DNA of 64,000 nucleotides. Source: Tachypleus tridentatus. Lineage: Eukaryota > Arthropoda > Merostomata > Xiphosura > Limulidae. Positions 1,948 to 56,772 of the stretch are shown one piece after another (within the stretch, counting starts at the first letter, position 1; every line of letters starts with the position of its first letter). The position numbers were made by a program, and so were the translations under genes. The stretch is taken from positions 93,004,170 to 93,068,169 of the forward strand of contig NC_134834.1 in assembly GCF_004210375.1 (NCBI RefSeq), written 5' to 3'. The notes below the pieces were generated by a model. The model saw nothing but the letters and a program-made list of their open reading frames with translations, was not told the origin of the DNA and did no database searches.

Positions 1948-4084
1948 TTAACCTGTTCAGTGCCGTCGACGAGATAACTCATCCAAGCCGATCGGTAACA
2001 CAGTGCCACGGACGAGTTTTCTCGTTCTCAATAATACCTAACGTCAACGCTAGATGTCAGCACCATACATGCATTTGACCTACTTACAAATTGTTTAAAT
2101 TTCGATCCAAAATGGCGTCACGAAAAAACTTACAAAATGAAGAAGCATTAGAGTTGTATTTTGAACTTGGTTCGGAGTTTGAAGATAGCAGTGGCGATTC
2201 AGAAGATTCGAACTTTGAAGATTCTTTTAAAAATACGGAACTACAACGCTCAGATGTTAGTGAAGATGATGATAATTGGCCATCAACCATCACTGGTAAA
2301 CGAGTGATAACAACAGGGAGCAGACGTAAAATTGTAGGTCGGGATAAGAACGGTTCCAAGAAAAAGTGCCCTAATGACAATGATTGGAGTGCTGAATCCT
2401 TTGCTGCTCCAGTTATAAACCCCATCTCAGGAAATCATGATGTCCAGTACGACGATTTGAGCCAAGACTCAAAGCCCTTTCGTTGGTTTCAAAAGTTCTT
2501 CCCTCCCAAAATTATTAACCATATTGTAACAGAGACCAATGAATATGCAGAAACTATGATGGCCCGCGCTGATTTGAAGGAACATTCTAGAGTAAAATCA
2601 TGGAAGTCAACTAATGAGAAGGAAATTTATGAATTTATGGGTCTGATAATGCTAATGGGCATAGAAAGAAAACCAACTATTTCCATGTACTTCAGTTCTG
2701 ACCTTTTGCTTGCCACATTCATTTTTGGTCAGTGCGTGTCAAAAAACCGGTTTTTTTTTTTGCTGCTATCGATGCTACACTTTGCTGACAATACTCAGGA
2801 AAATATTGTTACCAACGACAGCACAAGATGCAGCCCATTATTGACCATTTACGGGAGAAAAATTTAGAACCTCATATGTACCAAACGAATATGTGTGTAT
2901 TGACGAATCTTTGATACTAAGGAAGGGTCGACTGGGAATTCGACAGTACATTCTATCTAAAAGGGCTAGGTTTGGAGTCAAACGTTGTGAGCTATGTGAA
3001 AGTGTAACAGGCTATATTTGGGACTTTTTCATCTACACTGGTGCTACTACACAGTACAGCACTAAAGAGGGCGGACAGAGCGAACGTGTTGTACGCACAT
3101 TGATGGAATTATTGTTTGGACAAAATTGTAAGCTCTATTTGGATCGTGTTTTTTTACAAGTCCCACTTTAGCGAAGTCATTGCTTGATCCTGACACCTAT
3201 ATGTATGGGACAGTAATAAAAAATCGAGTTGGGATGCCGAAATGTTTCACAAATATCCAAAGGGGAGAAATGGAAGTGGAACAAAAAGACAAAATTGGTG
3301 TTTTTCACTGGAAGGATAAGAGGGACATTTTCAGGTTGAGTACAATACGTGACAATACCATGCAAAGCACTGGAAAGATATACCGTGCTACTGGTACAGC
3401 TATTGTAAAACCAAAATGTGTCATTGAATACAATCGTTATATGGGAGGGGTTGACTTATGTGACGGTGTGTTGCATACTTATCCGAGTATGAGCAAGGCT
3501 GTCAAGTGGTACAAAAAAAGTATTTTTTCATATGATGGATATAGCAGTGTACAATGCTTTGGTAGTTTACAAATCACTGGGAAACAACCTGTCTCTCCTG
3601 GAGTTTAGACTCGGAGTCATCCGTACCCTGATTGAAAATTACTACACTTAGCGCCCAAAATCCACTGGAGGCCGGCCGGCCTTCCTTGGAAATCCCCCTT
3701 TACCTCACAGAACGTCACTTCCCAACACTTATTCCCCAAACAGGAAAGAAAATGAACCCCACTAGAAAGCGTAAAGTGTGCTTTGACAAATCCACGAGGA
3801 GGAAAGCAGATATGAATGTACTGATTGCAAAGTGGCTCTTTCTGTTGACACCTGCTTCAAAACATTTCACACGAAAGTGAATTATTAAATGTGTCATGTA
3901 TTTCAATACCCAAAAATGACATTTTGTGCATTATTGTTTCATGTTTTGTACATATTTTTTTCATTTTGTGTACCACTATAAGTTTGACTTAAAAAAAAAA
4001 GCATTTGTTGCTTATTTCCAAAATTACTCGATTTTGCTGAAAAAAACCCATAGCAGCTGAAATACTTGGCAGTCAACAGGTTAA
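1948..4084 (+). mobile_element. piggyBac-like DNA transposon, degenerate
   Basis: Seen directly: the element is flanked by TTAA at 1948-1951 and 4081-4084, the target-site duplication of the piggyBac superfamily. Its ends are inverted: CCTGTTCAGTGCC at 1952-1964 matches the reverse complement of the right end (CCTGTTGACTGCC, 4068-4080) at 11 of 13 positions. Inside lies a transposase on the plus strand broken into four open segments (see next entry). The element is 2129 bp between the duplications, a normal size for an autonomous piggyBac. Complete ends with a decayed gene mean an old insertion that can no longer supply its own transposase, although its ends might still be recognised by a related enzyme. 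It is bordered by SINE-C copies on both sides. Confidence 0.92.
2112..3880 (+). pseudogene. piggyBac transposase (PGBD/DDE_Tnp_1_7 type), frameshifted
   Basis: A DDD transposase that would cut and paste the surrounding element at TTAA sites. The likely start is ATG at 2112 (MASRKN...), 7 codons inside a slightly longer open frame that begins at 2091. The first segment (to 2867) has the acidic, Ser-rich N terminus and the start of the catalytic domain. The second (2893-3171) holds VCIDESLILRKGR, with the first catalytic Asp, and CKLYLD, with the second. The third (3180-3608) holds YNRYMGGVDLCDG, with the third catalytic Asp. The fourth (3632-3880) is the basic C-terminal tail; the Cys-rich finger residues (ECTDC) are readable only in another frame near 3814. 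The frames used are 3, 1, 3 and 2, so there are at least three or four frameshifts, near 2870, 3150, 3610 and 3805. A run of 12 T lies near 2750. All three Asp codons survive, but no intact protein can be made. Confidence 0.92.
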
Positions 4085-14416: not shown

Positions 14417-15880
14417 TTATTGCCAAGGTCCGCCAGATGGAACAACAACATATTTATGATGGCCACCACCAACATAACCCCCGTGTCCGTAAACTCCTCT
14501 GGATGGATGATAAGGCACGACAGGAGCAGAGGATTCGACCGTGACGTCAGCAGGGTTCTCACTCTTGGTTCCAGGCTCGTTGGTAATGACGTGAGCTCTG
14601 AATCCTTCGGGACCCGCAGTGTATTGGACATTTCTTTGGCGTCCATCGGCGTCAGAGAGTTGATAGGATCCGCTAACACTTCCGTATCCATCGCCAGATT
14701 CCTGGCGGGCACTAGCACCACCAATAGCGGGAGCAACATAGCTAAAAGAATAAGGTGTGGGAACTGAAGGATACACTGGTTGTTGGCCGTAGTAGCCTCT
14801 CTGTTCAGAAAAATAAACTCGTTTTGAGTTATTCGCTTCTAAATATTCTCTTGTCAATATCGTGACTGACCTATTTCATTACAAGGAATTTTTAAAAAGG
14901 CATCATTTATTATGTAAATAATAACATACACGTTCAAAAACACTACAAAATGTAACATTTTTTTAAAATGAAAGTGAAACGTTAGAGTTGGTATTTTTTC
15001 TTCACTAAGCTATCCTATCTGTTCTTTCGTCTCACTTCTTTTCAAAGTTGTCCTATTTATACTTTGGTGAGTTTTCTTCACTAACTTGTCCTATCTATAC
15101 TTTGGTGAGTTTTCTTCACTAACTTGTCCTATCTATACTTTGGTGAGTTTTCTTCACTAACTTGTCCTATCTATACTTTGGTGAGTTTTCTTCACTAACT
15201 TGTCCTATGTATATTTTGGTATTATTTATTATTTAAACTGTCCTATCTGTACTCTGGTATTGCTTCTTCTCAAAGCTGTGCTATCTGTACTTTGGTATTT
15301 TTCCTTCTCTAAACTGTTCTATCTTTATACTTTGGTACTATTTCATCACTAATTTGCCCTATCTGTATATTTGGTACTATTTTTTCACTAAATTGTCTGT
15401 ACTTTGGTATTTTTTCCTCCCCTTAGTTGGCTGTGTCTAATATTTAGGAAAGCTTTGTATTTTGACACTTTGTGCATGTAACAGTTTCCTCATATAAAGA
15501 TTCTAAGTTTTAGTAAAATAACGATGATGAACCACAAATAAATTTTATGAATTTCAACTGTTAACAAGTTTACTTTAACACTTCAAACCACGAGGTGAAC
15601 GTTTGTCACTACATTAACATTTAAAATAAAATAAAAAAATTTCTTCCTGCTATATAAGAGATAGTGGTACTAAAAGCATTATAATTTTACTTTCTTAAGT
15701 AACTAAAGATTTATATTTGTTTTCAGAGGGAGCGCTAAACATTTGGTTTTTCTTTAGTTCTTCTACGTCTGTTTGTTTTTTAATACACAGAATAGACAAA
15801 CATTTACAATTTTATCACGTGTTTTTCAAACTTAAGGTCACTATTGCATTTCAGATCTGATTAATATCAACTAGCATGAA

Positions 15881-15911
<31 letters not shown>

Positions 15912-16827
15912 GTTTTTCTATCAACAAGACATTAGGCCTGGTATAACCTAGTGATTAAGTCTTTCGACTCGCAATCTGAGAGTCATGAGTTTGAATCCCT
16001 TACCACCCAGCATGCTTGTTCTATATGATTGTTAACTGGGTTATAAAATATATTGGCTTACTAGATTACAGATGGACCACTAATGTGATGCGCGGACGAT
16101 CGAACAAAACAAAAACCACACTACTGCTCCAAAAAAGGGAATGTGTTAGAAGATGATTTAGTGGGCTTTAAAGGAAGGAATCTTTTATAAAATTATTCAA
16201 GTAGGTATAACAGTATTATATGAATGTCTTAGAGAAACGGGTATAGATTAATAGATTAATTGAAATATTAACAGAAACCAGGTTAACAAAACTTACCGCT
16301 AAGCCTCCTCCTACGCCACCAGCAAATGCTCCAGCATGTCCTCCATGGAAATAACCACCTGCAGCTACCAATCCTGTACCAGCCAATCCTCTGGCTCCTC
16401 CCCCGACAAATCTCCCTAATCCTCCTCCAGTAATAAATCTACCTGCGCCTCCTAATCCTGCACCAATGAATCCTCCTTCTGTTGCAGCAAAGAATGCCAA
16501 AATCACCAGAACCTAGATATGTAAATAAAGCAACAACTGTAAACACAAATAAAACCATATTGCGTTTTTAATTTACCACAAATAGTATTTCAGAAAGTGC
16601 TTAATAATAGTAATTTCTTTGACAGGTTAGTATATTTTCGTGAAATAATTAATGATTTACGAGAACAGTTTGAAAATTATTGCATTCATTTGAACGAAAT
16701 GGTAGCGAAATGCATCGTATCATTGGATTGACGGTGTGCTTTATTTTTCTAGATATGACGCGAATCGAAACTCAGACTTACATATAAATAAGTATTATAT
16801 ATACACATATATACTCACCTGAATCAT
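14417..16827 (-). CDS. Cuticle protein with chitin-binding domain, gene 1 (three coding exons)
   Basis: A secreted structural protein of the exoskeleton, predicted to bind chitin. Coding exons on the minus strand: 16827-16819 (M-I-Q), 16512-16297 and 14800-14417 including TAA. Splice sites are canonical: donors GTGAGT and GTAAGT, acceptors ATCTAG and GAACAG, both introns phase 0. The product is about 202 residues. Residues 1-15 form a hydrophobic signal peptide split by intron 1 (MIQ-VLVILAFFAATEG). Residues 18-75 are Gly/Ala-rich. Residues about 92-153 form the chitin-binding block (Chitin_bind_4/RR-like, chelicerate type) with PYSFSY, GDGYG, SYQLSDADGRQR, VQYTAGPEGFRAHV and TNEPGT. The tail is Gly/His/Tyr-rich and ends GGPWQ. 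No in-frame stop interrupts it. The start is set by the ATG 95 nt after a TATA box and by the matching structure of the paralogue at 54701. Intron 2 holds a 38-bp tandem repeat, a GT microsatellite and a SINE fragment. Exon boundaries are inferred from sequence signals, not transcripts. Confidence 0.9.
15000..15440. repeat. 38-bp tandem repeat in intron 2 of cuticle gene 1
   Basis: Unit GTGAGTTTTCTTCACTAACT + TGTCCTATCTATACTTTG. Four units around 15067-15215 are almost identical at a 38-bp spacing. The flanking units on both sides (TTCTTCTCAAAGCTGTGC..., TTTCATCACTAATTTGCCC...) are diverged, giving about 10 copies in all. Confidence 0.85.
15881..15908. repeat. (GT)14 microsatellite
   Basis: Uninterrupted GT dinucleotide tract inside intron 2 of cuticle gene 1. 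Confidence 0.95.
15935..16060 (+). repeat. SINE-A head, diverged fragment
   Basis: GGCCTGGTATAACCTAGTGA, TTCGACTCGCAATCTGAGAG, GTTTGAATCCCTTACC and CAGCATGCTTG resemble the SINE-A tRNA-like head; the body fades out after about 16060. It lies antisense in intron 2 of cuticle gene 1. Confidence 0.65.
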
Positions 16828-16971
16828 TCTAACTATTAAACAGACCTCGAGAAATGGGAAGTATGTATTAAAAGGATAGTTCGACGAAGCTGTTAGTTAC
16901 TTGATTTTGAGCAACTTTTATACTGACACGAACTGTGTTACTTTACTGACGTCACTCATAACAATCCAATG
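16828..16971 (-). promoter_or_regulatory. Promoter of cuticle gene 1
   Basis: On the minus strand, reading downstream: ATTGG (inverted CCAAT box, 16970-16966), TTATGAG (16961-16955), the palindrome TGACGTCA (16954-16947), then TATAAAAG at 16922-16915, 95 nt before the ATG. The start of TGACGTC is exactly 32 nt upstream of the start of the TATA box, as in the paralogue. TGACGTCA is the CREB/ATF-type consensus; which factor binds is unknown. Confidence 0.8.
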
Positions 16972-16984
16972 GGAGTTGTTCTAT

Positions 16985-18095
16985 CTTAAAGTAACGAAAA
17001 TACAATATCAAATTTCAGTCACGTAGGATACTTTCTGGTTTCCTCAAACAGCCTTGGTTCAAAATATCCCCTTCTTCCACATGAAGGGATGACGGTGGAA
17101 AAACTGCCCTAGTTTAGTATGTGTGATGAAAGACAAGTTGGAGGTATGAATAACCACATTTTACTGGTATTTAAGAATATGAACTTATGTGTCTTAGACA
17201 TTGAATCAACAACACTATGAGCTCACGTTCGTGACTTTTTCTTTATTGTAAACCTAACTTATTAAACTTTCCAGGTTAAACAAGAAAAACTAAAATTGTC
17301 GTTATTTCTACAGCAATCTTTCAATCTTTGGCAAAGGCTTAAAGACATTCGGGGAGGGGGGCAGATGACAAAAGTTCCAAACTATGTCATACAGTATACG
17401 AGTTTCACGACTTTAAATAAACTTAACTTATATAAGTTGTATAGATTATACGAGCCAAAGTCGTAACAATTTATGTTAGTAATTGACCTGACAAATATAC
17501 GTCTGATTCTAGTCTTTATTAATGGGTGTTTTTCTGATTTTCTTTAATCAGCCTAGATTTCTCTCGCAACACTAAATACACTGAAAAAATTACTTTGTTG
17601 AAGATATTATGATCAAAGACATACTTATAAAGATACATATCTTTTGCGTAGAGAATGCTCATATTAAAAAATTGACCCAATCAGATTCGAAGTTGTTAGT
17701 AATATTTTTTTTTGAAAAATTGTTCGATGTAACCGTAGTTTTAATGACCATATACATTTCAACTCTACAGAAGCATTTAACACGCTTTATTTGTAGTCAA
17801 TCTAAGATCATTTATCTACAAAGAAGCAATATATAAAAGGATTTTAACCTCAACTTGTGCTCTACTTTGTGCATTTCAATAATTTAAAAGTTCCATTTAC
17901 TAATCCTATGGGACAATCGCAGTAAATAATTCAGGTGCTAACAAAAAAAAACATCAAAAGAGGTAATTAAAAAGTGTGATATATGCAGGTTACTAAAGGT
18001 TTGCAAAATATAAAAGATACGGTGCACGTGCTGATTTCACCATATAACACGATATACTACACCTTTTGATTAATGATAAAATGGTAAAACATATA
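16985..18095. other. Upstream intergenic, nothing recognised
   Basis: About 1.1 kb of AT-rich DNA with a GGGGAGGGGGG run near 17351. The 75-codon plus-strand open frame at 17609 has no motif. Confidence 0.5.
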
Positions 18096-19759: not shown

Positions 19760-21240
19760 CCGTAGTAGGTCATATAATAATAGTGTTTTATTGCATTCCC
19801 ATAATAGGTCATATTAAACTTGCTTTTTTTTGACTTTGTCATATAAAATTATCAGTAACAGTCATATAAAAAATTCATCTCTCTCTATAAAATTATCTTC
19901 TCTCACAGTCCTACAGTAGTCATATAAAAATTATCATCTCTAACACTCCTAGAATAGATCTATAAAATTATCTTCTCTCACAGTCGTATTGTAGGTCATA
20001 TAATAATAGTGTTTTATTGCATTCCCATAATAGGTCATATTAAACTTGCTTTTTGACTGTCTTACAGTAAATCATATAAAAATTATCTTCTCTCACAGTC
20101 CTACAGTAGTCATATAAAAATTATCATCTCTAACACTCCTAGAGTAGGTCTATAAAATTATCTTCTCTCACAGTCGTATTGTAGGTCATATAAAAATTAT
20201 CTTCTCTCACACTCCTACGGTAGGTCATATAAAAATTATCTTCTCTCACAGTCCTAAAGTAGGCCATATAAAATTATCTTCTTTCACAATCCTTCGATAG
20301 GTTATATAAAAATTTTATTTCGTCATAATCCTGTTGTAGGTCAAAGAAATATTTTTTCTCACAGTCTAACTATTGGTCATACAAAAATTGTGTTTGTCAC
20401 GGTCTAGTAGGTCATATAGCAACTGTTTTTGTCACAGTTCGACAATAGGTCGTTTCAACTTGTATTCTGTTGCACTCCCAAAGTAAGCCACATCAAACTT
20501 ATCTTTTGTCATAGTTCTATAGTAGGTTATATAAAAATCTCCTTTTTTCACAGTTGTACAGTAAATCATAAAAATTGTATTTTTTCAAAGTCCTATAGTA
20601 CGTCAAACAATTTGTTTCTCACAGTAGGTCATATAAAAATTGTATTTTGTCGCAGTCCTGTAGTAAGTAATATAAAAATTGTATTTTGTCGCAGTCCTGT
20701 AGTAAGTCATATAAAAATTGTATTTTGTCGCAGTCCTGTAGTAAGTCATATAAAAATTGTATTTTGTCGCAGTCTTGTAGTAAGTAATATAAAAATTGAA
20801 TTTTGTCGCAGTCCTATAGTAGGTCATATAAAAACTGTATTTTGTCGCAGTCCCGTAGCAAGTCATATAAAAACTGTATTTTGTCGCAGTCCTGTAGTAA
20901 GTCATATAAAAATTGTATTTTGTCGCAGTCCTGTAGTAAGTCATGAAATTGTATTTTGTCGCAGTCCTTTAGTAAGTGACATAAAAACTGTATTTTGTCG
21001 CAGTCCTATAGTAGGTCATATAAAAACTGTATTTTGTCGCAGTCCTGTAGTAAGTCATGTAAAAACTGTATTTTGTCGCAGTCCCGTAGCAAGTCACATA
21101 AAAACTGTATTTTGTCGCAGTCCTGTAGTAAGTAATATAAAAATTGTATTTTGTTGTACTCTCATAGTAGGTCACATTAAACTTGTCTTTTCTCACAGTC
21201 CTGTACTAGGTTGTAAGAAAATTGGTTTTGTCACTTTCCT
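19760..21240. repeat. 39-bp tandem repeat array, about 38 copies
   Basis: Unit about GTAAGTCATATAAAAATTGT + ATTTTGTCGCAGTCCTGTA. Units in 20630-21150 are close to identical. The left part (19760-20430) holds diverged subtypes with ATTATCTTCTCTCACAGTCC or GTGTTTTATTGCATTCCCA. A block near 19765 is repeated near 19991. Because 39 is divisible by 3, a 313-codon plus-strand frame (20429-21370) and two minus-strand frames stay open, each a 13-residue repeat. I see no signal peptide, homology or codon signature, so these are not called as genes. Confidence 0.93.
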
Positions 21241-21603
21241 TGGTTTTGATACAAAAATTCTTTTATCGTTATCGTATAGTAGTTGCTATAAAAATTGTCT
21301 TTTTCCAAAGTGTTGTATGATAATTGGAACAAGTTCAATTCACTTTTTTTGTTGTTGTAGTTTATTGTGAATAATACCACTAAATAGTGAAGAAATGTCC
21401 ACGTAATTCTATGAAGTTTTCCTAAACTAGAAAAAACGTTTTCGTTTCAATGATGTTTTACTTCTGTTTTCGGTGTGACGATAAAGAGTAATTGCAAACT
21501 ACACACTATTAACATTCCCAGCAATCATTACCTTGGTCATATACTTTCTTATTTACGTATGTCATTGAAGCCATAACCAGAAATGAATTTTATAACTCTA
21601 TCC
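21241..21603. other. Intergenic, nothing recognised
   Basis: No feature supported beyond fading copies of the 39-bp repeat at its left edge. Confidence 0.5.
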
Positions 21604-25712: not shown

Positions 25713-27376
25713 CACTGCTGGCCAAATCTTAAGACCAATGAACATAAAGAAAAAATATGCATTTTGCGTTGTTAGACTCAACCATTTATTTGAGTAGAGC
25801 TTCAAAAGATGAAAATAAGAAAAGAGAAAATAAAAATAAAAAACCTTTTTAGCATTTAATAGAGAAAATGGGAACACTATGAAATTAGCCTAAATACTAG
25901 CTGGTCAAAAGTTTAAGACCATACCATACAGAAGCTTTAAACAGGGTAGGAAAATGCCCAACAAGAGATCTCAGTGGTGAGTTGCACAGCCATCATTGCG
26001 AATAACTGCAAACATTCCCAAACGCAAACTAATGTATCAGGGGTTTAGTTTAGAGAGAGAGAAATCTGAAGAATTCTCTCTCCAACTGGGGTGATGAGGA
26101 ACTTTGTGGTTCCTCTTCGTCCCCTCTGCAAACATTCACTTTGTCATGGTCGATATAAGCGTTTGCAGAAGGCTGGCTGGAATGTTATTCATAGTGGTGA
26201 AGATGGCTTCACGAAGATCATACACTGTTTGAAATTGACGTCCATTTCTAAGGACTTCCCATGCCATCTGCCCCAAAACATTTTGAATGGGGTTCAGTTC
26301 GGGCGAACACGCTGGACGGTCCAAATGAATCACGTTATTCGCCATGAAAAAGTCCTTTGTCCTGCAGGCATTTTGGATTGCAGCGTTGTCCTGCAGAAAG
26401 ATCCAGTCATTTCCACACAAGCGAGGGCCTTTACTCAATAAAGATGCTCTCTCCAACATGTCAATGTAGCCAGCTGCTGTTTGACGCCCCTGTTTAACCT
26501 AAAGCTCCATTGTTCCGTGGAAGGAGAAAGCACCCCAGATCATAATGGAACCTCATCCATTGTGTCGTGTAGGAAATGTCTCCGGTGGGATATCCTTATC
26601 GTGCCAGTAACGTTGGAAGCCATCTGGACCATCCAGGTTAAATTTTTCTCATCAGAGAACAAAACCTTCTTCCACTTTTCTACGTCCCATGTTTGGTGTT
26701 TCTCAGCAAAGTTTAACCGAGCTGTTTCGTGGTGTGGAAGGAGACGTGGCCTTTGAAAACGTTTACGGTTTTTAAGGCCTTTCTCTTGTAGATGCTGTCT
26801 TATTGTTCTTGAGCTGTATTCTAAGTCCGTAAGGGCCTTGATCTGGTTCGACGATCGGCTGGTGTCTTGCCGGACAACTCGTCGTATTCTCCTGCTCAAC
26901 GTTGGCGAAGTTTTCTTGGGCCAACCACTTGAAATTTCGTTCTGTATCCCTCAGTGTCTTTTAAGAAATTTGCAACAACAGTTTTACTATGCCAAATCTC
27001 ACCAGCGATGGCACGTTGAGAGAGACCTTGCTTTTGTAGCTTGAAAATACTGCCATGTTTTTACCTAATGTAACACAGGAGTGTCAGTGAGAGGTGTTGA
27101 CAACACTAATGCTTGAACACAAATGATTAAATATCGTTATGTGTTTACCGATTAACGCTTCGTTTCAGTATGGTCTTAAACTTTTGACCAGCTAGTATTT
27201 AGGCTAATTTCATAGTGTTCACAGTTTCCTATTAAATGCTAAAAAATTTTTTAAATTTTATTTTCTCTTTTCTTATTGTCATCTTTCGAAGCTCTACTCA
27301 AATAAGTGGTTGAGTCTAACAACGCAAAATGCATATTTTTTTATGTTCATTGGCCTTACAATTTTGGCCAGCAGTG
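25713..27376 (-). mobile_element. Tc1-like transposon with 212-bp IR/DR ends
   Basis: TA dinucleotides flank the element at 25711-25712 and 27377-27378. Both ends begin CACTGCTGGCCAAA (right end read on the minus strand). The inverted repeats run 25713-25924 and 27168-27376. Each repeat holds two related transposase-site-like motifs: the outer CTGGCCAAATCTTAAGACCA and the inner CTGGTCAAAAGTTTAAGACC, the IR/DR layout known from Sleeping Beauty-type Tc1 elements. The two arms are highly similar over their length. The transposase lies on the minus strand and is broken (next entry). Confidence 0.93.
26136..27050 (-). pseudogene. Tc1-like transposase (DD34E type), broken and catalytically changed
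   Basis: A DDE transposase reading from about 27050 down to 26136. The N-terminal helix-turn-helix is readable as KQGLSQRAIAGEIWHSKTVV, then a frameshift near 26900, then the second DNA-binding part SRRIRRVVRQDTSRSSNQIK. The catalytic domain has [13 protein letters not shown] (first Asp), a stop plus frame changes around 26460-26540, then WIFLQDNAAIQNA (second Asp) and ACSPELNPIQNVLG. In the family the last motif is SPDLNPIEN. Here the third catalytic acid, exactly 34 residues after the second Asp, reads Gln (CAA instead of GAA). C-terminal residues NGRQFQTVYDLREAIFTT are conserved. The enzyme cannot be functional. Confidence 0.92.
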
Positions 27377-28872: not shown

Positions 28873-30077
28873 CACACTTAGTTGCCACTTTATTAGGTAC
28901 ACCTATCTAGTACCTGGTAGGATCCTCTTTTACCTCCAGAACTTCCTAAATTCTTCGAGACATGGATTCAATAATTTGTTGGAAACATTCCTTTGGGATT
29001 TTGGTCCATACTGACTCGATAGGATCACGCAGTTCCTGCAGATTTGTCGACCACATAGTCACGCTGCGAACCTCCCGTTCCACTTCATCGCAAAGGTTTT
29101 CTATTGGATTGAGATCTGGGGATCGTGCATGCCATTGGAGTGCAATGAGGCCACTGTCATGTTGATGGAACCAGCTTGAAATGATGCGTGCTTTGTGACA
29201 TGGCGCATTATCCCGCTGAAAGTAGCTATTGGAAAACAGGTATGCTGTTGCCATAAAGGGATGCACATGGTTAGTAACAATACTTAAGGACGCTGTGGCA
29301 TTCAAACGATGCTAAATTTGTATTAAGGGGCCTAATGTGTGCCAAAAAACGTTCTCCACACCATTACACTACCACCAGCAGCCTGTACTGTTGACACTAG
29401 GCAAGATGGATCCATAGATTCACGCTGTTTACGTCAAACTGTGACCCTACCATTTGTATGTTGCAGAAGAAATCAAAATTCATCAGACCAGGCGACATTT
29501 TGCCAGTCTTCAATTGTCCAGTTTTGGTGATCCGGTGTCCATATAATCTCATTTTCCTGTTCTTAGCTTACAAGAGTGGAACCCAGCGTGGTCTTCTGCT
29601 GCTGTAGCCCAGTTCCTTCAAGGTTCGACGTTGTGAGCTCAGAAATGCCCTTCTGCACATCACTGTTGTAAATAGTGTTTTTTTTTTAATATTTGTAGCA
29701 TTTCTTTCAGCTTGAAAGAGTCTGGCCATTCTCCTCTGACCTCACTCATTAATAAGGTGCTTTTGCCCACAGAACTGCCGCTCACTAGATTTTTATTGCA
29801 CCATTCTTTGTAAACTCTAGATATTGTTGTGCATGAAAATCATAAGAGGGCAACAGTTTCTGGGATGCTGGAACAACTATGTCTGGCACCAACAATCATT
29901 CCATGGTGAAAGTCGCTTATATCACACATCTTCCCCAATCTAATGTTTGGTCGAACAACAACGGAACCTCTTGACCATCTTTGCATGCTTTATATATTTA
30001 GTTGGAGCCACGTGATTCAATGTTTGATTACTTACGTGAAAGATCAGATGTACCTAATAAAGTGGCCACTAAGTGCG
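28873..30077 (-). mobile_element. Tc1/mariner element with DD36E-like transposase, degenerate
   Basis: The inverted ends share CACTTAGTTGCCACTTTATT plus AGGTACA on the left and CACTTAGTGGCCACTTTATT plus AGGTACA on the right (minus strand). Outer limits are approximate because I do not see a clean TA on both sides. The length is about 1.2 kb. The transposase is on the minus strand. CACTTTATTAGGTACA ends are familiar to me from elements in fish genomes; that is memory, not a search. Confidence 0.85.
28946..29945 (-). pseudogene. DD36E-type Tc1/mariner transposase, interrupted
   Basis: Reading from about 29945: MCDISDFHHGMIVGARHSCS then SIPETVALL and TTISRVYKEWCNKN form the N-terminal helix-turn-helix region. 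WQNVAWSDEF (first catalytic Asp) is followed at once by an in-frame TGA near 29480. ESMDPSCLVSTVQAAGGSVM is readable near 29400. The open part at 29305-28946 has YFQRDNAPCHKARI (second Asp) and ARSPDLNPIENLCDEVERE (Glu), with 36 residues between them. DD36E spacing is that of the Incomer group. Stops and frame changes break the gene, but all three catalytic residues are still encoded. Confidence 0.88.
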
Positions 30078-41360: not shown

Positions 41361-43149
41361 GTACCACCAATTACTGATCTTGTCGCTTACGAGAAAACAA
41401 TAACATTAAATGATAAAATAAAGCAAAATATAACCGGTTGGACAAAGTAATTACAGTATAGAATATTGAAAGAGGGTTTGAAAAGTCAGGAAAATTGAAA
41501 CATTATCTTAAAATCTGTTTAAATCAGAGAAGTTAAGACTTTCATTTTTTTTACTCCCAGAATCTGCACGTGCATACAAACTAGACTGTTTAGCTGTGCC
41601 GGTTGTTAGTAAAGTTTAGTCTAATCTTGGTTAGTCTCTTTGTGTTGTTTTATCTGGTGGTAATTACATAAGTTTTATATTTGGTTGTAAATAACAAAAA
41701 TGAAACCTTTTAATGTCTATTGTCAACATGGAAATTTCAGATTTTTTCCTTTAGAGTCGTAGTTTGAAAAACAGTCTTTTTTATCCTTCATAATCAAACT
41801 ACAAGCTAACGTTGTGTTAACCAGGTAGAATTATGAAAAACTATGAAAATGTCAGCGTGTCCTACAAACACGTGGGGTAGTTTGGTATATCCTGAAATTC
41901 TGGAAAACATACGACCATTTATCAAGTTGAAAAGAAGGGAAAAATTACTTGAAGCCTACATTCTTAAAACATTGCTTCAGGAGTTTAGATTGCAAGTTTC
42001 AGATATTACATGCTGTTATTCATTATGCTGTTGGAACTATATATTATATAGACGTCCATATCTGAATTTAACATCAGTAAAACGATTTTCTGTATAAAAT
42101 ACGAAAGAAGTTCTTTTGTAGTAGAAAGTGTAATAGAAGAACACTACAAAAGTAAAATGGCCCATTATATATATATAATATTCTTTCATTATGCTTGAGC
42201 AATGCATAATTTATGCTTCTTCGTGTGATTTGTTTGGGAATATGTTGTTGTAACTGTATGTGTGACCAGCACAATAGACAAGTCTACTAAGCACTATATG
42301 TTCAATTTACTTAAATGCAACTTTTTAAAAATTGGTAAAGAGAAAATATGACATTTCCGTGACATCGTGATAAGAGCACACTATCTAGAGAACCAATATC
42401 GTAAAACGTATGGACACCAGATGAAAGAGACATTAAAGTAGGAATCGTGGTGGCTGCGAAATAAACCGCTGTGGTTTTAACTACAAGCAAGGGAGCGCTT
42501 CACTTTCCCCTGCTGGTCTCTTTAATGATTTCAGTACATTTGTAACAAAGCTAACAAAGAAATAATATATACAGTTAGCAATTAGTTCACGTCAGAATCA
42601 GGCGGTATCGTTGATTTTCTGAGAATTATTGATTGCGGAACAATAAATACCACATTTTCTTTATTACAAACGAAAAACCAAGACATGCGTGTGTACACCA
42701 GGAATTAACGTCAGCCGACAGCACATTAAAACCAATAAGGTTGCAGGTGCAGATCTGTTGGCTCATTTAGTAATTTACAAACTGCAATTTCAGTTCTTCC
42801 ATTTCTTTCAGAAAAAATGACAACTTCAAAGCTTCTGTCCTAAAGGACTAAATGAGTAATTTAAGATAATAAAGAAAATAGAATGTAATAGTAATACTCA
42901 TGAATGAAGTTTTATCTCAAATCTGTGCTGTTTAAGTCTCGAACCAAAATAATAGTCGGCTGTTGGTGCGAGTAATTACTAGTTGTAGTGTTAAATTGTA
43001 ATATGTTTACATATATTAAAAGTAGTACCGCTTATTGAAAAAAAATAATAGTTTTTAAGAACTCCAGTTTCTCAATACTCCATTTAAAAATTACATTAAT
43101 AAAAATATGATCAACTCTTACGTACAGTTCTGGTTAAAGTCATGTTCAT
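41361..43149. other. Intergenic, nothing recognised
   Basis: 1.8 kb without a supported gene. An 84-codon plus frame at 41843-42097 has ordinary composition but no motif, splice context or homologue known to me. Confidence 0.5.
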
Positions 43150-43545
43150 GTTCCGAGGAGGGTATCTTGGTGTTCTGTGACAAAAATGGTTGTTGCACAT
43201 ACCACGAGGGTATCTTGGTGTTCTGTGACAAAAATGGTTGTTGCACATACCACGAGGGTATCTTGGTGTTCTGTGACAAAAATGGTTGTTGCACATACCA
43301 CGAGGGTATCTTGGTGTTCTGTGACAAAAATGGTTGTTGCACATACCACGAGGGTATCTTGGTGTTCTGTGACAAAATGGTTGTTGCACATACCACGAGG
43401 GTATCTTGGTGTTCTGTGACAAAAATGGTTGTTGCACATACCACGAGGGTATCTTGGTGTTCTGTGACAAAAATGGTTGTTACACATACCACGAGGGTAT
43501 CTTGGTGTTCTGTGTCAAAATGGTTGTTGGACATACCACAGTTTT
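43150..43545. repeat. 48-bp tandem repeat, 8 copies
   Basis: Unit GAGGGTATCTTGGTGTTCTG + TGACAAAAATGGTTGTTGCA + CATACCAC, nearly perfect. One unit near 43370 and the last have AAAA instead of AAAAA, which moves the reading frame. Long open frames on both strands and in several phases come from the 48-bp period and are not called as genes. Confidence 0.97.
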
Positions 43546-45062
43546 TTTCTAATTGTTTGAATCTTGACTATCCAAAATGTAACATTTTACTGATTTGTGT
43601 TTGTGGTGCCGTTCAATAGATGGCGTAGGGGTTTTGGTTACATACATAGATACTGACATGCATGCTATATCCATTACAGTAAGATTACAAGTATCAAATA
43701 TGATAATTTATTTAGCTATCAAATTATCTGTTAAATATGAACTTGGATGTAGGATGAGATGAGGGAAAGTCAGCACTGAGAGTCAGAGATTTTGTGTACT
43801 GCCTGTGTCTTTAACACCATGCTTACAAAGCGCGAAAACAGCTTCCTACAGCATTCAACCAATAGTGTAGTCAGTTCCATTAAAATAATAGGCGTTTTCA
43901 AAATACTTAAAATGTTGCTTTAGGTTGTATGTATCAGATATTGCTGAAAGTGAAGGTCTACTTTTGGGTCTATAAGATTTACACATTAACGTGTTACGAG
44001 GTATTTGTATAAATATAAAAAATGAAAGGAAAAAAAAGGCCCAAAACTCGAGTGCTTTCAAATACTTGACTATCGTTTTTCAGGAGAATGAATAATTAGG
44101 TATCTGTATCATATTTAAAAAAAAACGTATGATACTTCCGTAGGTCACATTTCAGTTTGATCAGGAAGTTACGTGCTCTTACTAGATGCTAAAGTCTCTT
44201 GTAATATACAGTGCGCTTACTTAGTTTTAGAAACAATCAAGAACTACTTGGCGTCCTGATATGTTGTCTTCTCTAAAAGTGTTTAGCGCAGAATGGTTCC
44301 GACTGATAAACTTAAGATAAGCGTGTGACATCTGGCTTCATTAAGCAGTATAACAGAGCATGACCAGACGAGTTTGCTTTATTATAGGTGGGGTGAGCAT
44401 ATCTGTATATTCCACATCGAAGCTATGATAACTCCGATCAGGTTTTAACAACGTACTGAAACGTTACTAGTTGATGTGTCTAGTCCTCTGAACGAGATTT
44501 ATTCAGCTATGTCTCACATAGAGATAATTATCTTTTGCGTGTGTGTAGCAAACTGCATGCTACGCTGCTCCGAGTGTGTTTGTTTGTTTTTTCTCAACCA
44601 ACGGGACAGCGTAAGAATAAGTAATGCGCAAGTCTACGAAGCAAAAGGTTTACTTTTAAGTTGTAGAAAATTTGCAACTCTTATATAATTACTATTTCTA
44701 TTGTTATTTGTTTGTCTTGATAACCAAATCTGGTTTATTACTGTGTTTTCCTTTCGAAGCATGGCTTGATTTACTAATGTTAAAAACTTCAATATACAGA
44801 ATAACTTTCAGTTGTCTCTAACTCTGGGTCTAGACGAAATCACTTCTATGATCTAACTTTTTTATAAAGATAAGTTACTTATACGCTACATATAAATTTT
44901 AGGCACTTAATTTATGTTCGAGGAAGGGAAATCTACTGAGCAAGTACACATTAACGATAATGGAATTATTAAGTGTTTATGAATATTTATATATATAGGT
45001 ACACTTTCAGAACTAAATTTCATAACTTTGTTGAAGTTTCCAGTAAATACAGTGTACACATA
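43546..45062. other. Intergenic, nothing recognised
   Basis: 1.5 kb of AT-rich DNA; small frames at 43855 and 44476 show no motif. Confidence 0.5.
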
Positions 45063-53515: not shown

Positions 53516-54560
53516 CCGTTAAAATATTACTTGATCGAAAACTTGGATTGATTTTGAATAAAGTTACTATTCGCATTGAATAACTGAAAATTTGCATCCG
53601 TAATTCACAAGCACACTATCTATAGATATTCAGAAGCAAATCTCACATCTTACTTTAACAAATTCCCAGTAACAATTTATGCTTACTTCAAGTCATTTAA
53701 CATTTTATTGTTTAGAAGTAATATATTTATTGTTACTTCAGTTAACTGTCAAGATTAATTTTTATAAGTTAAACTTAAGACTGACAAACAAAAGAACAGA
53801 GCTGCACTACTTCGTAAATCGTATATTATGGTGATCACCTTCAGAAGTTAAATGTTTCCTTTAAAACACTTGTTGTTATACAAAACAGAAGAAATACTTT
53901 ATTAAGGGTAGATTTTCTATAAGGTGAGTTCATTAGAAGCAGATAATACTGTTCATGATAATTGTGTCATTATACGATATCAAGATGAACTTAGGCTTAA
54001 TCAAAACTGTATTTTGAAGTGTGTTTTAGCTAAGAGGATGTAGTTAAATCAGAGAAATGAAAAGCTACAGAATGATAATTTTACTAACGAAGAAACTCAT
54101 TCGTATACATTTGTCTCCTGTTACAAACTGCAAGTCGTTCAGAGCTCATAAAAATAATAGAAACCTTCGTGTCCGAAATGAAAAGCATATTAGATACATT
54201 CCATCGTATAATCTGTTTTAAAAATATAATCTAACTATACCTTCACACTCTTGTTATCTTTGAAGTCATTGTTTATTATCACGTGTCACATTAATGTTAA
54301 AGTGGTTTCTAATTAGTTTTAACAATCCCTTCATCCTCGAAACTAGAAAAGTAGGACACGTTTTTTATACACGAGTGTTTCTCAGTGGAGAAGAAAGTGA
54401 TGAATTAACCCAATGCTACTTAGAAAATAGAGACAAGGATTTCAGTAGCATTAGCCCAGAAAATAGATCACAGAGGTTCCCGCCTCGCTCAGAAGAACTC
54501 ATGATCTTTGTTTATTAGAACAAGAAATTAGCCTACGTAATCGACATTTGACTACTGACT
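53516..54560. other. Intergenic, upstream of cuticle gene 2
   Basis: A 74-codon plus frame (54294-54518) ends just upstream of the promoter; it has no recognisable motif and no paralogous counterpart near gene 1, so it is not called. Confidence 0.5.
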
Positions 54561-54573
54561 TTGATCGCCCGTA

Positions 54574-54700
54574 TCATTGGCTTATGAGAAGTGACGTCGA
54601 AAGAAACTTGGATCTTGCTGCTATAAAAGCATTATAGAGTTCTTCACTTGGCACACTTAACCAAATATCCTCTGCTAATAAACTATAGACACATTGAGAA
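54574..54700 (+). promoter_or_regulatory. Promoter of cuticle gene 2
   Basis: CATTGG (54574-54579), TTATGAG (54581-54587), TGACGTC (54591-54597) and TATAAAAG (54623-54630), followed by the ATG at 54701, 78 nt after the TATA box. Order, sequence and the 32-nt TGACGTC-to-TATA distance match the promoter of cuticle gene 1. Transcription probably begins near 54650-54660. Confidence 0.82.
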
Positions 54701-56772
54701 ATGATTAAGGTAAGATTTCCAGGCTCTGTTTGTTTGTTTTTGAATTTCGCGCAAAGCTACATAGGGCTATCTGTGTTAGCCGTCCCTAATTTAGCAGTGT
54801 AAGAGTAGAGAAGGAGTAGCTAATTTTCCCCACCCACCGCCAACTCTTGAGCTACTCTTTTACCAACGAATAGTGGGATTGACCGTAACATTATAACGCC
54901 CACACGGCTGAAAGGGCCAGCATATTTGGTGGGAAGGGGATTCGAACCCGCGACCCTCAGATTAGGAGTTGGGCGCCCTAACTACCTGGCCATGTCGGGC
55001 CTTCAGGCTCTAAGTTGGTTTAACTCTTTATCCGCAGTATAACTGACTAATGAGACTCAATGATTAATTAATTTTTTGTTCATTTGTTATGAGTCACGTG
55101 ATATCTTGTTTAGTGTTATGTATGTTATTTCCACTATTTACGTCATTCCTGATAACTTGTGATGGTGAAATAATTCAGGTAGAAATTTAAGTTTACGTTC
55201 AACATGAGTAATGGAAAAACTGGAGCATGTGAATTACGAAGCAATTTTCACCCGCTTGATGCAATTGTTTCGTATTTAAAAGGCCTTTAAAAAAAAAAAA
55301 TTTGTTTGTTTAAGAAAGACGATATTTCTACACAAGGGCTCTCTGTGAATAACCATCCGTAAATGTATTCAGATAAACTACAGAGAAACGAGGTAGTAAA
55401 TACCACCTTCCGCCAACTCCTGAACTACTATAGCTTATAACTGGTATACTAGACAGAGGCCCAAAGTGCAGAATACCTTTATGCAGCAAATGGGTGCAAA
55501 CCGTAAATTCCCGGACTCACAGGCCGTGCTTGAGAACCATTAGACTCCACTTAGTCCACTTTTAACTGAAACTATTTGTCATACTTCTCTTGAAACTCCA
55601 TATATTAAACTATTCGTTTTGAATTGATACATATAAGTTGAAATCGAGTAAAAACCTGTAAAGCCGAGTTGTATATAGACAAAGCTACTATGTTGCTTGT
55701 GAGTTTTTCATGCAAAATTGGAGTACAAGATCACAGTTATCCAGGCTTTAAAGTTTTTTTGTTAAATAGAAATAGTTTAATATATATCTACTGCCAATCA
55801 AATGAGTTTTAACTTTTGTTTCATATTATTGTCTTTAATTTATACAATCCTTTGTCAGGTATTAGTTATTCTTGGATTCTTCGTTGCTACTGAAGCAGGT
55901 TACATTGGAGCAGGAGGAGGGGGTACAGGTGGACTCTATGGTGGAGGTGGAGGAGGTGGCTTTGCCAACTTGGTTCCCGTGCAGATCGTAAGTCGAATAT
56001 TTATAGAAGGAAAAAAACAAATTTGATATATTTGAAAAAAAAACATTAATTGCAACGCTGGATATTTTTCAAACTTGTTAACTGTATAAAAGTAAACATA
56101 GAACTACGATTTTTTTTTATAAGTTCTCAAAGTTGGAGTTCTTAGAAGCACAAAGAAGTTAATATAGTCACTGTAAATATTTTTTTGTTAGGCTTATTTC
56201 TTGTTGGTACAGATTAAAACTTGAAAAACAATGTCTAATTATCTATCATTTTTAAGTCTAATCTGTTTGTATATTGGATTAACATGAAAAAAAAATTATA
56301 TATTGGATTAACCTGATTAAACTTAATATAACTCTAATGAAGTGATAGTGAATCACAGTATTTGTCTTAACAATAGGGTGCCGGAGGAGGCTATGGCCGA
56401 CAACCAGTGTACCCTTCTATTCCTACACCTTACAGTTTCAGCTATGCTGCCCCTGCTCTTGGTGGGTTTAGTGCACGCCAGGAATCTGGTGATGGATACG
56501 GAAGGGTGAGAGGATCGTATAAACTTTCTGGTGCTGATGGACGCCAGAGAAAAGTTCAATACACAGCAGGTCCAGAGGGATTCAGAGCTCATATCTACAC
56601 CAATGAACCAGGCACAAAGAGTGAAAACCCTGCTGATGTCGTTGTCCAATCTTCTGCTCCTGTTGCACCTCCTTATTACCCACCAAGACGACACTATGGA
56701 TACGGAGGCTCTGCTGGTGGTGGTGGTCACAAGAAATATATTATTGTCCCAAGTGGTGGCCCTTGGCAATAA
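54701..56772 (+). CDS. Cuticle protein with chitin-binding domain, gene 2 (three coding exons)
   Basis: Paralogue of the gene at 14417-16827; a secreted exoskeleton protein expected to bind chitin. Coding exons: 54701-54709 (M-I-K), 55859-55987 and 56377-56772 including TAA. Donors are GTAAGA and GTAAGT, acceptors TTTGTCAG and AACAATAG, both introns phase 0. The product is about 177 residues. Residues 1-16 form the signal peptide (MIK-VLVILGFFVATEA), 17-40 are Gly-rich, 65-126 form the chitin-binding block (PYSFSY, GDGYG, SYKLSGADGRQR, VQYTAGPEGFRAHI, TNEPGT), and the Pro/Tyr/Gly-rich tail ends GGPWQ. The Gly-rich segment in exon 2 is 29 residues shorter than in gene 1. An upstream ATG at 55802 that is open through exon 2 is rejected as start because the acceptor, the paralogue and the promoter all place exon 1 at 54701. 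Intron 1 contains a SINE-A 18 nt after the donor. Confidence 0.92.
54728..55002 (-). repeat. SINE-A in intron 1 of cuticle gene 2
   Basis: Complete copy, antisense to the gene; head GGCCCGACATGGCCAGGTAG on the minus strand. CCAGGCTCT (54719-54727) and TCAGGCTCT (55003-55011) flank it as a target duplication. It starts 18 nt after the splice donor. Confidence 0.95.
55299..55432 (-). repeat. SINE-A, diverged 3' part in intron 1 of cuticle gene 2
   Basis: Plus-strand reading: TTTGTTTGTTTAAGAAAGAC, TACACAAGGGCTCTCTGTGA, TAGTAAATACCACCTTCCGC, CAACTCCTGAACTACTATA. It ends in a SINE-D-like segment. Confidence 0.7.
55433..55560 (-). repeat. SINE-D copy in intron 1 of cuticle gene 2
   Basis: Plus-strand reading: TTATAACTGGTATACTAGAC, GGCCCAAAGTGCAGAATACC, ATGGGTGCAAACCGTAAATT and GAGAACCATTAGACTCCA, the same order as at 4365 and 25270. 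Confidence 0.55.

What the first reader, a model, noticed from the sequence alone, without database searches (positions are those of the whole stretch)
54574..54700. Promoter module shared by two cuticle genes on opposite strands 38 kb apart
Upstream of both cuticle genes the order is ATTGG, TTATGAG, TGACGTC, TATAAAAG. TGACGTC starts exactly 32 nt before TATAAAAG in both (54591 and 54623; 16954 and 16922 on the minus strand), while the sequence between them and the distance to the ATG (78 vs 95 nt) differ. Conserved blocks in otherwise diverged DNA suggest selection on a CREB/ATF-type site plus an adjacent unknown TTATGAG site, perhaps a moult-cycle or epidermal switch for this cuticle family.
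Basis: partly seen in the sequence, partly recalled or inferred. Interest (0 to 1): 0.75.

Follow-up and report, generated by a model that had tools for sequence, protein, structure and literature searches.

The report
Shared promoter of horseshoe-crab cuticle genes
A family of horseshoe-crab shell-protein genes on four chromosomes keeps the same short promoter layout, three control sites at nearly fixed distances, although the DNA around them has drifted, so the layout is probably how these genes are switched on together.

Summary
CRE start to TATA start is 30 nt in gene A and 32 in gene B, not 32 in both. TTATGAG is not part of the module: it occurs in 2 of 20 paralogous promoters, out of register.

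The 2.17 Gb genome holds 21 close paralogues on four chromosomes; a promoter was located for 20 of 21. The conserved unit is ATTGG (inverted CCAAT), a CRE-like TGACGTCA 15-18 nt on, and TATAAAAG 30-34 nt after that (19 of 20). Letter identity among eight divergent promoters is 1.00, 0.88 and 0.94 in the three sites, against 0.44 and 0.36 in the spacers. Beyond -230 identity is at shuffle level, and dS is 0.83 or more for the 39 pairs computed with A, B or C.

A tight pattern of the module has 12 matches genome-wide, 10 of them in these clusters; the reversed control has none.

Best reading: an NF-Y plus CREB/ATF-type composite TATA promoter under purifying selection, co-driving a xiphosuran cuticle subfamily. 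Factor identity, tissue and moult timing are inferred.

The parts
54576..54580 (+). Gene A: ATTGG, inverted CCAAT box
   Evidence: exact in 19 of 20 located family promoters
54592..54599 (+). Gene A: CRE-like site TGACGTCG
   Evidence: 16 nt after ATTGG start
54622..54629 (+). Gene A: TATA box TATAAAAG
   Evidence: 30 nt after CRE start
54539..54550 (+). Gene A: upstream block AATCGACATTTG, a variant of the type I block GATTGACATTTG
   Evidence: suggestive only
54582..54588 (+).
   Evidence: exact in 2 of 20 promoters
54701..54709 (+). Gene A exon 1 (ATGATTAAG), then donor GTAAGA
55859..55987 (+). Gene A exon 2, signal-peptide-like and Gly-rich; boundaries by eye
56377..56772 (+). Gene A exon 3 with Chitin_bind_4 domain, ends GGPWQ; start approximate
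16966..16970 (-). Gene B: ATTGG, inverted CCAAT box
16947..16954 (-). Gene B: CRE TGACGTCA
   Evidence: 16 nt after ATTGG start
16915..16922 (-). Gene B: TATA box TATAAAAG
   Evidence: 32 nt after CRE start
17029..17040 (-). Gene B: upstream block AACCAGAAAGTA
   Evidence: suggestive only
17009..17020 (-). Gene B: decayed type I block GACTGAAATTTG
   Evidence: suggestive only
16955..16961 (-).
   Evidence: out of register with gene A
16819..16827 (-). Gene B exon 1 (ATGATTCAG), then donor GTGAGT
16297..16512 (-). Gene B exon 2, signal-peptide-like and Gly-rich; boundaries by eye
14417..14797 (-). Gene B exon 3 with Chitin_bind_4 domain, ends GGPWQ; start approximate

Best explanation
The sites form a family-wide proximal promoter: an inverted CCAAT box (ATTGG), a CRE/ATF-type site (TGACGTCA) starting 15-18 nt downstream, and a TATA box starting 30-34 nt after that. 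It serves a horseshoe-crab subfamily of Chitin_bind_4 (RR-type) cuticle proteins. Inferred mechanism: NF-Y on the CCAAT box and a bZIP factor of the CREB/ATF or CrebA/Creb3L kind on the CRE bind on a near-fixed geometry, help TFIID at the TATA box, and so give strong, co-ordinated, probably moult-linked expression in epidermis; more variable upstream blocks would adjust subgroups. Shown here: presence across the family, spacing, selective conservation, and rarity in the genome. Inferred: the binding proteins, the tissue and the timing.
For: Of 21 close paralogues on C7, C8, C10 and C13, a promoter was located for 20. Recount over the 20: ATTGG exact in 19; TGACGT or GACGTC in 19; TGACGTC exact in 15; ATTGG to CRE 15, 16 or 18 nt; CRE to TATA 30-34 nt in 19. 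An ATG followed by a splice donor, not used in picking the promoter, stands 53-99 nt after TATA in 17 of 20, at 185 in L041 and near 427 in L029 (an insertion in the leader). Among eight divergent promoters mean pairwise identity is 1.00 (ATTGG), 0.88 (CRE), 0.94 (TATA), against 0.44 and 0.36 in the spacers. Beyond -230 identity is 0.60 against 0.59 in shuffles, while dS is 0.83-2.43 in the 39 pairs with A, B or C among 15 of the 21 genes. In 264 kb, 3 of 637 TATAAA sites carry the spaced module, namely genes A, B and C. Genome-wide the tight pattern has 12 matches, 10 in these clusters; its reversed control has 0.
Against: Promoters were picked by TATAAA with CRE and CCAAT words nearby, so part of the agreement is by selection. 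Paralogues are not independent, and near-copies inflate the counts (L025 and L026 are identical over 510 nt; the C13 array). The looser pattern is hardly specific: 40 matches against 28 for the reversed control, 15 of 40 in the clusters. L033 shows no module within 5 kb. Four genes with open exon-3 frames (L024, L035, L036, L037) have a one-letter departure in the CRE heptamer. A and B alone do not stand out by local alignment of the last 160 nt (score 24, reached by 122 of 4931 random pairs), and an unguided k-mer count over eight promoters was not decisive. In 9 more distant cuticle genes the module in range was not found within 2.0 kb, so it is not a general cuticle switch, or their promoters lie outside what was read. 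No other species was compared; no binding or expression data.
Confidence: 0.72

Rival explanations
1. The likeness is only descent: the promoters are copies of one ancestor that have not yet had time to diverge, with no selection on the three sites.
For: All members are paralogues, several are near-copies (L025/L026 identical over 510 nt; L034-L025 dS 0.05, L035-L036 dS 0.08), and upstream blocks are shared within promoter types.
Against: Among divergent members the three sites are 0.88-1.00 identical but the spacers between them 0.36-0.44, flanks beyond -230 are at shuffle level, and dS is 0.83-2.43 for the 39 pairs with A, B or C.
Confidence: 0.08
2. The bZIP site is read not by cAMP-responsive CREB but by CrebA/Creb3L or XBP1/ATF6-type secretory factors, tying output of a secreted cuticle protein to secretory capacity. 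This is a sub-hypothesis of the best explanation.
For: CrebA loss gives defects in cuticle secreted by epidermis and lowers transcripts of secretory machinery and cargo in Drosophila (PMC12262295, passages). CCAAT plus a bZIP site also occurs in ER-stress promoters (recalled).
Against: The sites are mostly the palindromic CRE TGACGTCA or its close variants (15 of 20 have TGACGTC), which suits CREB/ATF at least as well; the passages read print no CrebA motif letters, so the motif was not compared.
Confidence: 0.3
3. The module is a generic strong TATA promoter found at many unrelated genes of this genome, with no special link to cuticle genes.
For: CCAAT, CRE and TATA are common promoter words (recalled); the loose pattern has 40 matches against 28 for its reversed control, 25 of the 40 outside the clusters.
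Against: At family spacing with TATAAAAG, 10 of 12 genome matches are in these clusters and the control has 0; in 264 kb 3 of 637 TATAAA sites have it and these are the three cuticle genes.
Confidence: 0.1
4. One reading: a CREB/ATF site plus an adjacent unknown TTATGAG site is the functional pair.
For: TTATGAG lies just upstream of the CRE in A and B, and gene C has TTATGAT there.
Against: TTATGAG in 2 of 20 promoters and TTATGA in 3 of 20; in A and B they are out of register relative to ATTGG and the CRE.
Confidence: 0.04

Closest known systems
Shared upstream elements of the 26 co-expressed RR cuticle genes on silkworm chromosome 22 (PMC2848646, passages read)
   Same: Clustered Chitin_bind_4 genes whose upstream regions share sequence elements, proposed to co-ordinate expression.
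   Different: Silkworm elements I-III are 41-, 34- and 21-nt MEME motifs within 2 kb; the passages seen name no CCAAT-CRE-TATA unit. Here the unit is proximal, spaced, and lies on four chromosomes.
MHC class II W/SXY module: X2 box (CREB) and Y box (inverted CCAAT, NF-Y) (PMC7866136, passages read)
   Same: A CREB site and an inverted CCAAT box at constrained spacing, shared across promoters of one gene family.
   Different: There the listed order is W/S, X, X2 (CREB), Y (CCAAT); here ATTGG comes before the CRE and a TATA box stands at near-fixed distance. No RFX site was looked for. A likeness in build, not kinship.
CrebA/Creb3L promoter-proximal regulation in Drosophila secretory tissues (PMC12262295, passages read)
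   Same: A bZIP factor acting through promoter-proximal sites; its loss damages epidermal cuticle.
   Different: Direct targets described are mainly secretory-pathway genes; binding here is untested.

Membership tests
RR-type (Chitin_bind_4, PF00379) cuticle protein genes | Chitin_bind_4 domain above the curated cut-off | tested here: met
   57.5 and 57.4 bits against a cut-off of 25 for exon 3 of A and B
RR-type (Chitin_bind_4, PF00379) cuticle protein genes | Secreted: signal peptide at the start | tested here: inconclusive
   Exon 2 encodes VLVILGFFVATEAG (A) and VLVILAFFAATEGG (B), signal-peptide-like by eye; no predictor run
CREB/ATF-regulated promoter | TGACGTCA-like site close to the TATA box | tested here: met
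   TGACGT or GACGTC in 19 of 20 located promoters, 30-34 nt before TATA in 19 of 20 (one of these 19 is the mutated site of L034)
CREB/ATF-regulated promoter | Binding by a CREB/ATF factor and response to its signal | not testable with these tools
   no binding or expression data
NF-Y (CCAAT) promoter | CCAAT/ATTGG pentamer about 60-100 nt upstream of the start (recalled) | tested here: inconclusive
   ATTGG exact in 19 of 20, 46-49 nt before TATA in 19 of 20 counting TTTGG of L038; no start site mapped, NF-YA search not answered
MHC-II-like SXY module | X (RFX), X2 (CREB), Y (CCAAT) in that order | tested here: not met
   Order here is CCAAT then CRE in the 20 located promoters; RFX site not looked for
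Xiphosuran (horseshoe crab) genome | Coagulogen (PF02035), recalled as known only from horseshoe crabs | tested here: met
   19 matches, best E 1.5e-25; 0 of 14 control genomes

The most novel reading that the evidence does not exclude
An arthropod counterpart, in build, of the MHC-II enhanceosome: NF-Y and a CREB/CrebA-type bZIP on a stereospecific CCAAT-CRE-TATA frame, perhaps read by a dedicated co-activator that switches a whole cuticle subfamily on at moult; kept since before the family spread over four chromosomes (possibly by the horseshoe-crab genome duplications) and found almost nowhere else in the genome.
Probability: 0.2. Interest if true: 0.65.

Novelty: new member of a known kind. 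Interest (0 to 1): 0.42.

Why it matters
If right, it gives a concrete, testable control module for cuticle production in horseshoe crabs, and a sequence tag that picks out one cuticle subfamily almost cleanly from 2.17 Gb (10 of 12 matches). It would also be a case of a spaced promoter kept while its genes spread over four chromosomes, useful for asking how long such a grammar survives duplication. The parts are ordinary promoter words, so it is a good instance of a known principle, not a new one.

Tried and rejected
TTATGAG as a conserved site: rejected. Exact 32-nt spacing: rejected. Recent duplication as the whole explanation: rejected for the divergent members.

A and B alone: local alignment of the last 160 nt scored 24, reached by 122 of 4931 random pairs of window stretches. 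The case needed the paralogues.

Unguided k-mer count over eight promoters: the top count of 8 of 8 was reached in 9 and 18 of 60 shuffled sets for the whole region (8-mers with 1 mismatch, 10-mers with 2), and in 4 and 3 of 60 for the part upstream of the core, where CCAGAAAGTA-like words led. That script stopped with an error before its last region. I treat the upstream blocks as suggestive.

Broken gene, broken module: L041 (3 stops in exon 3; CRE-TATA 45), L038 (1 stop; TTTGG) and L034 (no ATG-donor word found downstream; TAACGTGA) fit such a link. Against it, L024, L035, L036 and L037 have open exon-3 frames with a one-letter departure in the CRE heptamer. L029, which I first took for broken, keeps an exon-1 word near +427 behind an insertion. 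Left as a suggestion.

Spread by genome duplication: a neighbouring receptor-like gene had no match near the other clusters (6 matches); an Ig-domain neighbour did not complete. The protein tree (15 of 21 genes) gives a supported type III group across C10, C13 and C7 (97/95) but 7 of 12 inner branches are open.

The two C12 matches (identical over the match, about 181 kb apart): no cuticle-like frame seen in about 2.9 kb downstream of one; the other was not read.

Literature: eight searches listed, among the rows shown, no paper on promoters of horseshoe-crab cuticle genes or on a CCAAT-CRE cuticle module. The library holds open-licence PMC papers only and most lists were cut, so this is weak evidence of absence.

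Full report
WHAT WAS CLAIMED AND WHAT IS THERE. The window holds two RR-type cuticle genes: gene A (+, exon 1 at 54701, exon 3 ending 56772) and gene B (-, exon 1 at 16827, exon 3 ending 14417). Their third exons encode Chitin_bind_4 domains (57.5 and 57.4 bits, cut-off 25) and are 76% identical over 128 aligned positions. Upstream of each lie ATTGG, TTATGAG, TGACGTC and TATAAAAG in that order. CRE start to TATA start is 30 in A and 32 in B, so "exactly 32 in both" is a misreading; ATTGG to CRE is the equal offset, 16 in both. TGACGTC..TATAAAA at 20-32 nt is rare (2 seen, 0.01 expected). TTATGAG alone is not (9 seen, 11.8 expected).

THE ORGANISM. The window lies on contig C10 of G000, a 2.17 Gb assembly. 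Coagulogen-type exons (PF02035) are present (19 matches, best 1.5e-25; 0 of 14 control genomes). As I recall, that family is known only from horseshoe crabs, so I take the genome as xiphosuran; the species is not known to me.

THE PARALOGUE TEST. A protein search with exon 3 of A scored 150 of 294 candidates; 21 form a close group (E at most 1.9e-39), followed by a gap to 9e-22. They lie on C10 (3), C13 (6), C7 (11) and C8 (1). I read 2.5-4 kb upstream of exon 3 of each, 9 kb for gene C and 5 kb for L033 and L034. A promoter was located for 20 of 21; L033 gave none. Selection was by TATAAA with CRE and CCAAT words nearby, which is partly circular. The check is exon 1, which was not used in picking: an ATG with a splice donor stands 53-99 nt after TATA in 17 of 20, at 185 in L041 and near 427 in L029; none was found for L034.

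THE MODULE. Recount over the 20: ATTGG exact in 19 (TTTGG in L038); TGACGT or GACGTC in 19 (TAACGTGA in L034); TGACGTC exact in 15; ATTGG to CRE 15, 16 or 18; CRE to TATA 30-34 in 19 (45 in L041). TTATGAG is exact in A and B only; TTATGA also in C. Among eight divergent promoters mean pairwise identity is 1.00 in ATTGG, 0.88 in the CRE and 0.94 in TATA, against 0.44 and 0.36 in the spacers. Over nine representatives (36 pairs) the stretch -60 to +10 averages 0.69 identity against 0.57 in shuffles; -230 to -60, 0.62 against 0.59; -400 to -230, 0.60 against 0.59; the leader +10 to +90, 0.60 against 0.57. NG86 dS is 0.83-2.43 in the 39 pairs with A, B or C among 15 of the 21 genes (exon 3 of the other six was not fetched). 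The three sites are kept while silent sites and flanks have largely lost their likeness.

SPECIFICITY. In the 264 kb around and including the window there are 637 TATAAA sites; 3 have the module at family spacing, and they are genes A, B and C. Genome-wide, the loose pattern has 40 matches against 28 for its reversed control, 15 of the 40 in the clusters, so loosely defined it is hardly specific. The tight pattern (ATTGG N10-13 TGACGT N24-28 TATAAAAG) has 12 matches against 0; 10 of 12 are in the clusters. Nine of these ten belong to genes in the list of 21; the tenth (C7:166305318) has an exon-1 word (ATGTTCCAG, donor GTAAG) 92 nt after TATA but no listed exon-3 match near. The other two are one repeated sequence on C12; no cuticle frame was seen in about 2.9 kb downstream of the one that was read. 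The tight pattern misses the type III promoters (TATAAAGC) and those with a changed CRE heptamer, so it is not a full census. Nine more distant cuticle genes (of 129 lower-scoring matches) had no module in range within 2.0 kb; L048 has a loose relative (ATTGG to TGACGT 11, to TATA 22). Their promoters may lie outside what I read.

UPSTREAM BLOCKS. Three promoter types can be told apart by eye in the alignment. Type I (A, L024, L025, L026, L028, L034, L040; all four chromosomes) has a GATTGACATTTG block, exact or with one or two changes; TGATTGACA recalls a PBC-MEIS site (recalled, untested). Type II (B and L035, L036, L037, L039, L041) has AACCAAGGCT..AAACCAGAAA-like sequence, and B also carries a decayed form of the type I block. 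Type III (the C13 array, C, L038) lacks the type I block. Type III is a supported group across three chromosomes (97/95) but the rest of the tree is weak. Spread by block duplication, perhaps in the horseshoe-crab genome duplications described in PMC7815833 (abstract and passages), would fit but was not shown: one search gave no support and searches did not complete.

MECHANISM. Shown: conservation, spacing and rarity. Inferred: NF-Y binds ATTGG, a CREB/ATF or CrebA/Creb3L bZIP binds TGACGTCA, and together they set up strong TATA-dependent transcription of a secreted structural protein. In MHC class II promoters CREB and NF-Y sites stand in fixed order, orientation and spacing as one cooperative platform (PMC7866136, passages), which shows that such a pair can work as a unit; the order of the two sites differs here. 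CrebA loss in Drosophila damages cuticle secreted by the epidermis and lowers many secretory-cargo transcripts (PMC12262295, passages), which makes it a natural candidate. Moult timing is a reasonable guess and no more.

COMPARISON AND VERDICT. Shared upstream elements in clustered cuticle genes are known from the silkworm (PMC2848646, passages). This is a new member of that kind with a better defined unit.

Noticed in passing
window 54745-55001: A tRNA-like, SINE-type repeat in intron 1 of gene A, with similar pieces in other loci (such as L042 and L045); recognised by eye.
   Followed up: no
Gene C (C10:92994190 region), L027, L030, L031, L032, L040: First intron appears to start with GC (GCAAGT) instead of GT in six family members, while others have GT.
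   Followed up: no
G000 C7:166396187 and C7:166939366: Two family genes about 543 kb apart on opposite strands with promoters identical over 510 nt: a very recent inverted duplication or an assembly duplicate.
   Followed up: partly
C7:166303000-166305400 (L066) and C7:166337871: Family promoters with no listed exon-3 match near. The first has an exon-1 word; the second was not read.
   Followed up: partly
window 2079-3880, 26136-26950, 28946-29311: Transposase-like frames, piggyBac-like and mariner/Tc1-like by eye; no library search made.
   Followed up: no
window 20420-21370 and 43059-43619: Tandem repeats that keep reading frames open over more than 180 codons.
   Followed up: no
C10:93068516-93069886 and C10:93089489-93090814 (right flank): Two long single-frame membrane-receptor-like genes (gustatory-receptor-like by eye), 24 and 35% identical in the matched parts.
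   Followed up: partly
C10:92913055-92956989 (left flank): Series of Ig-domain-like exons on the minus strand, resembling a Dscam-type gene by eye.
   Followed up: no
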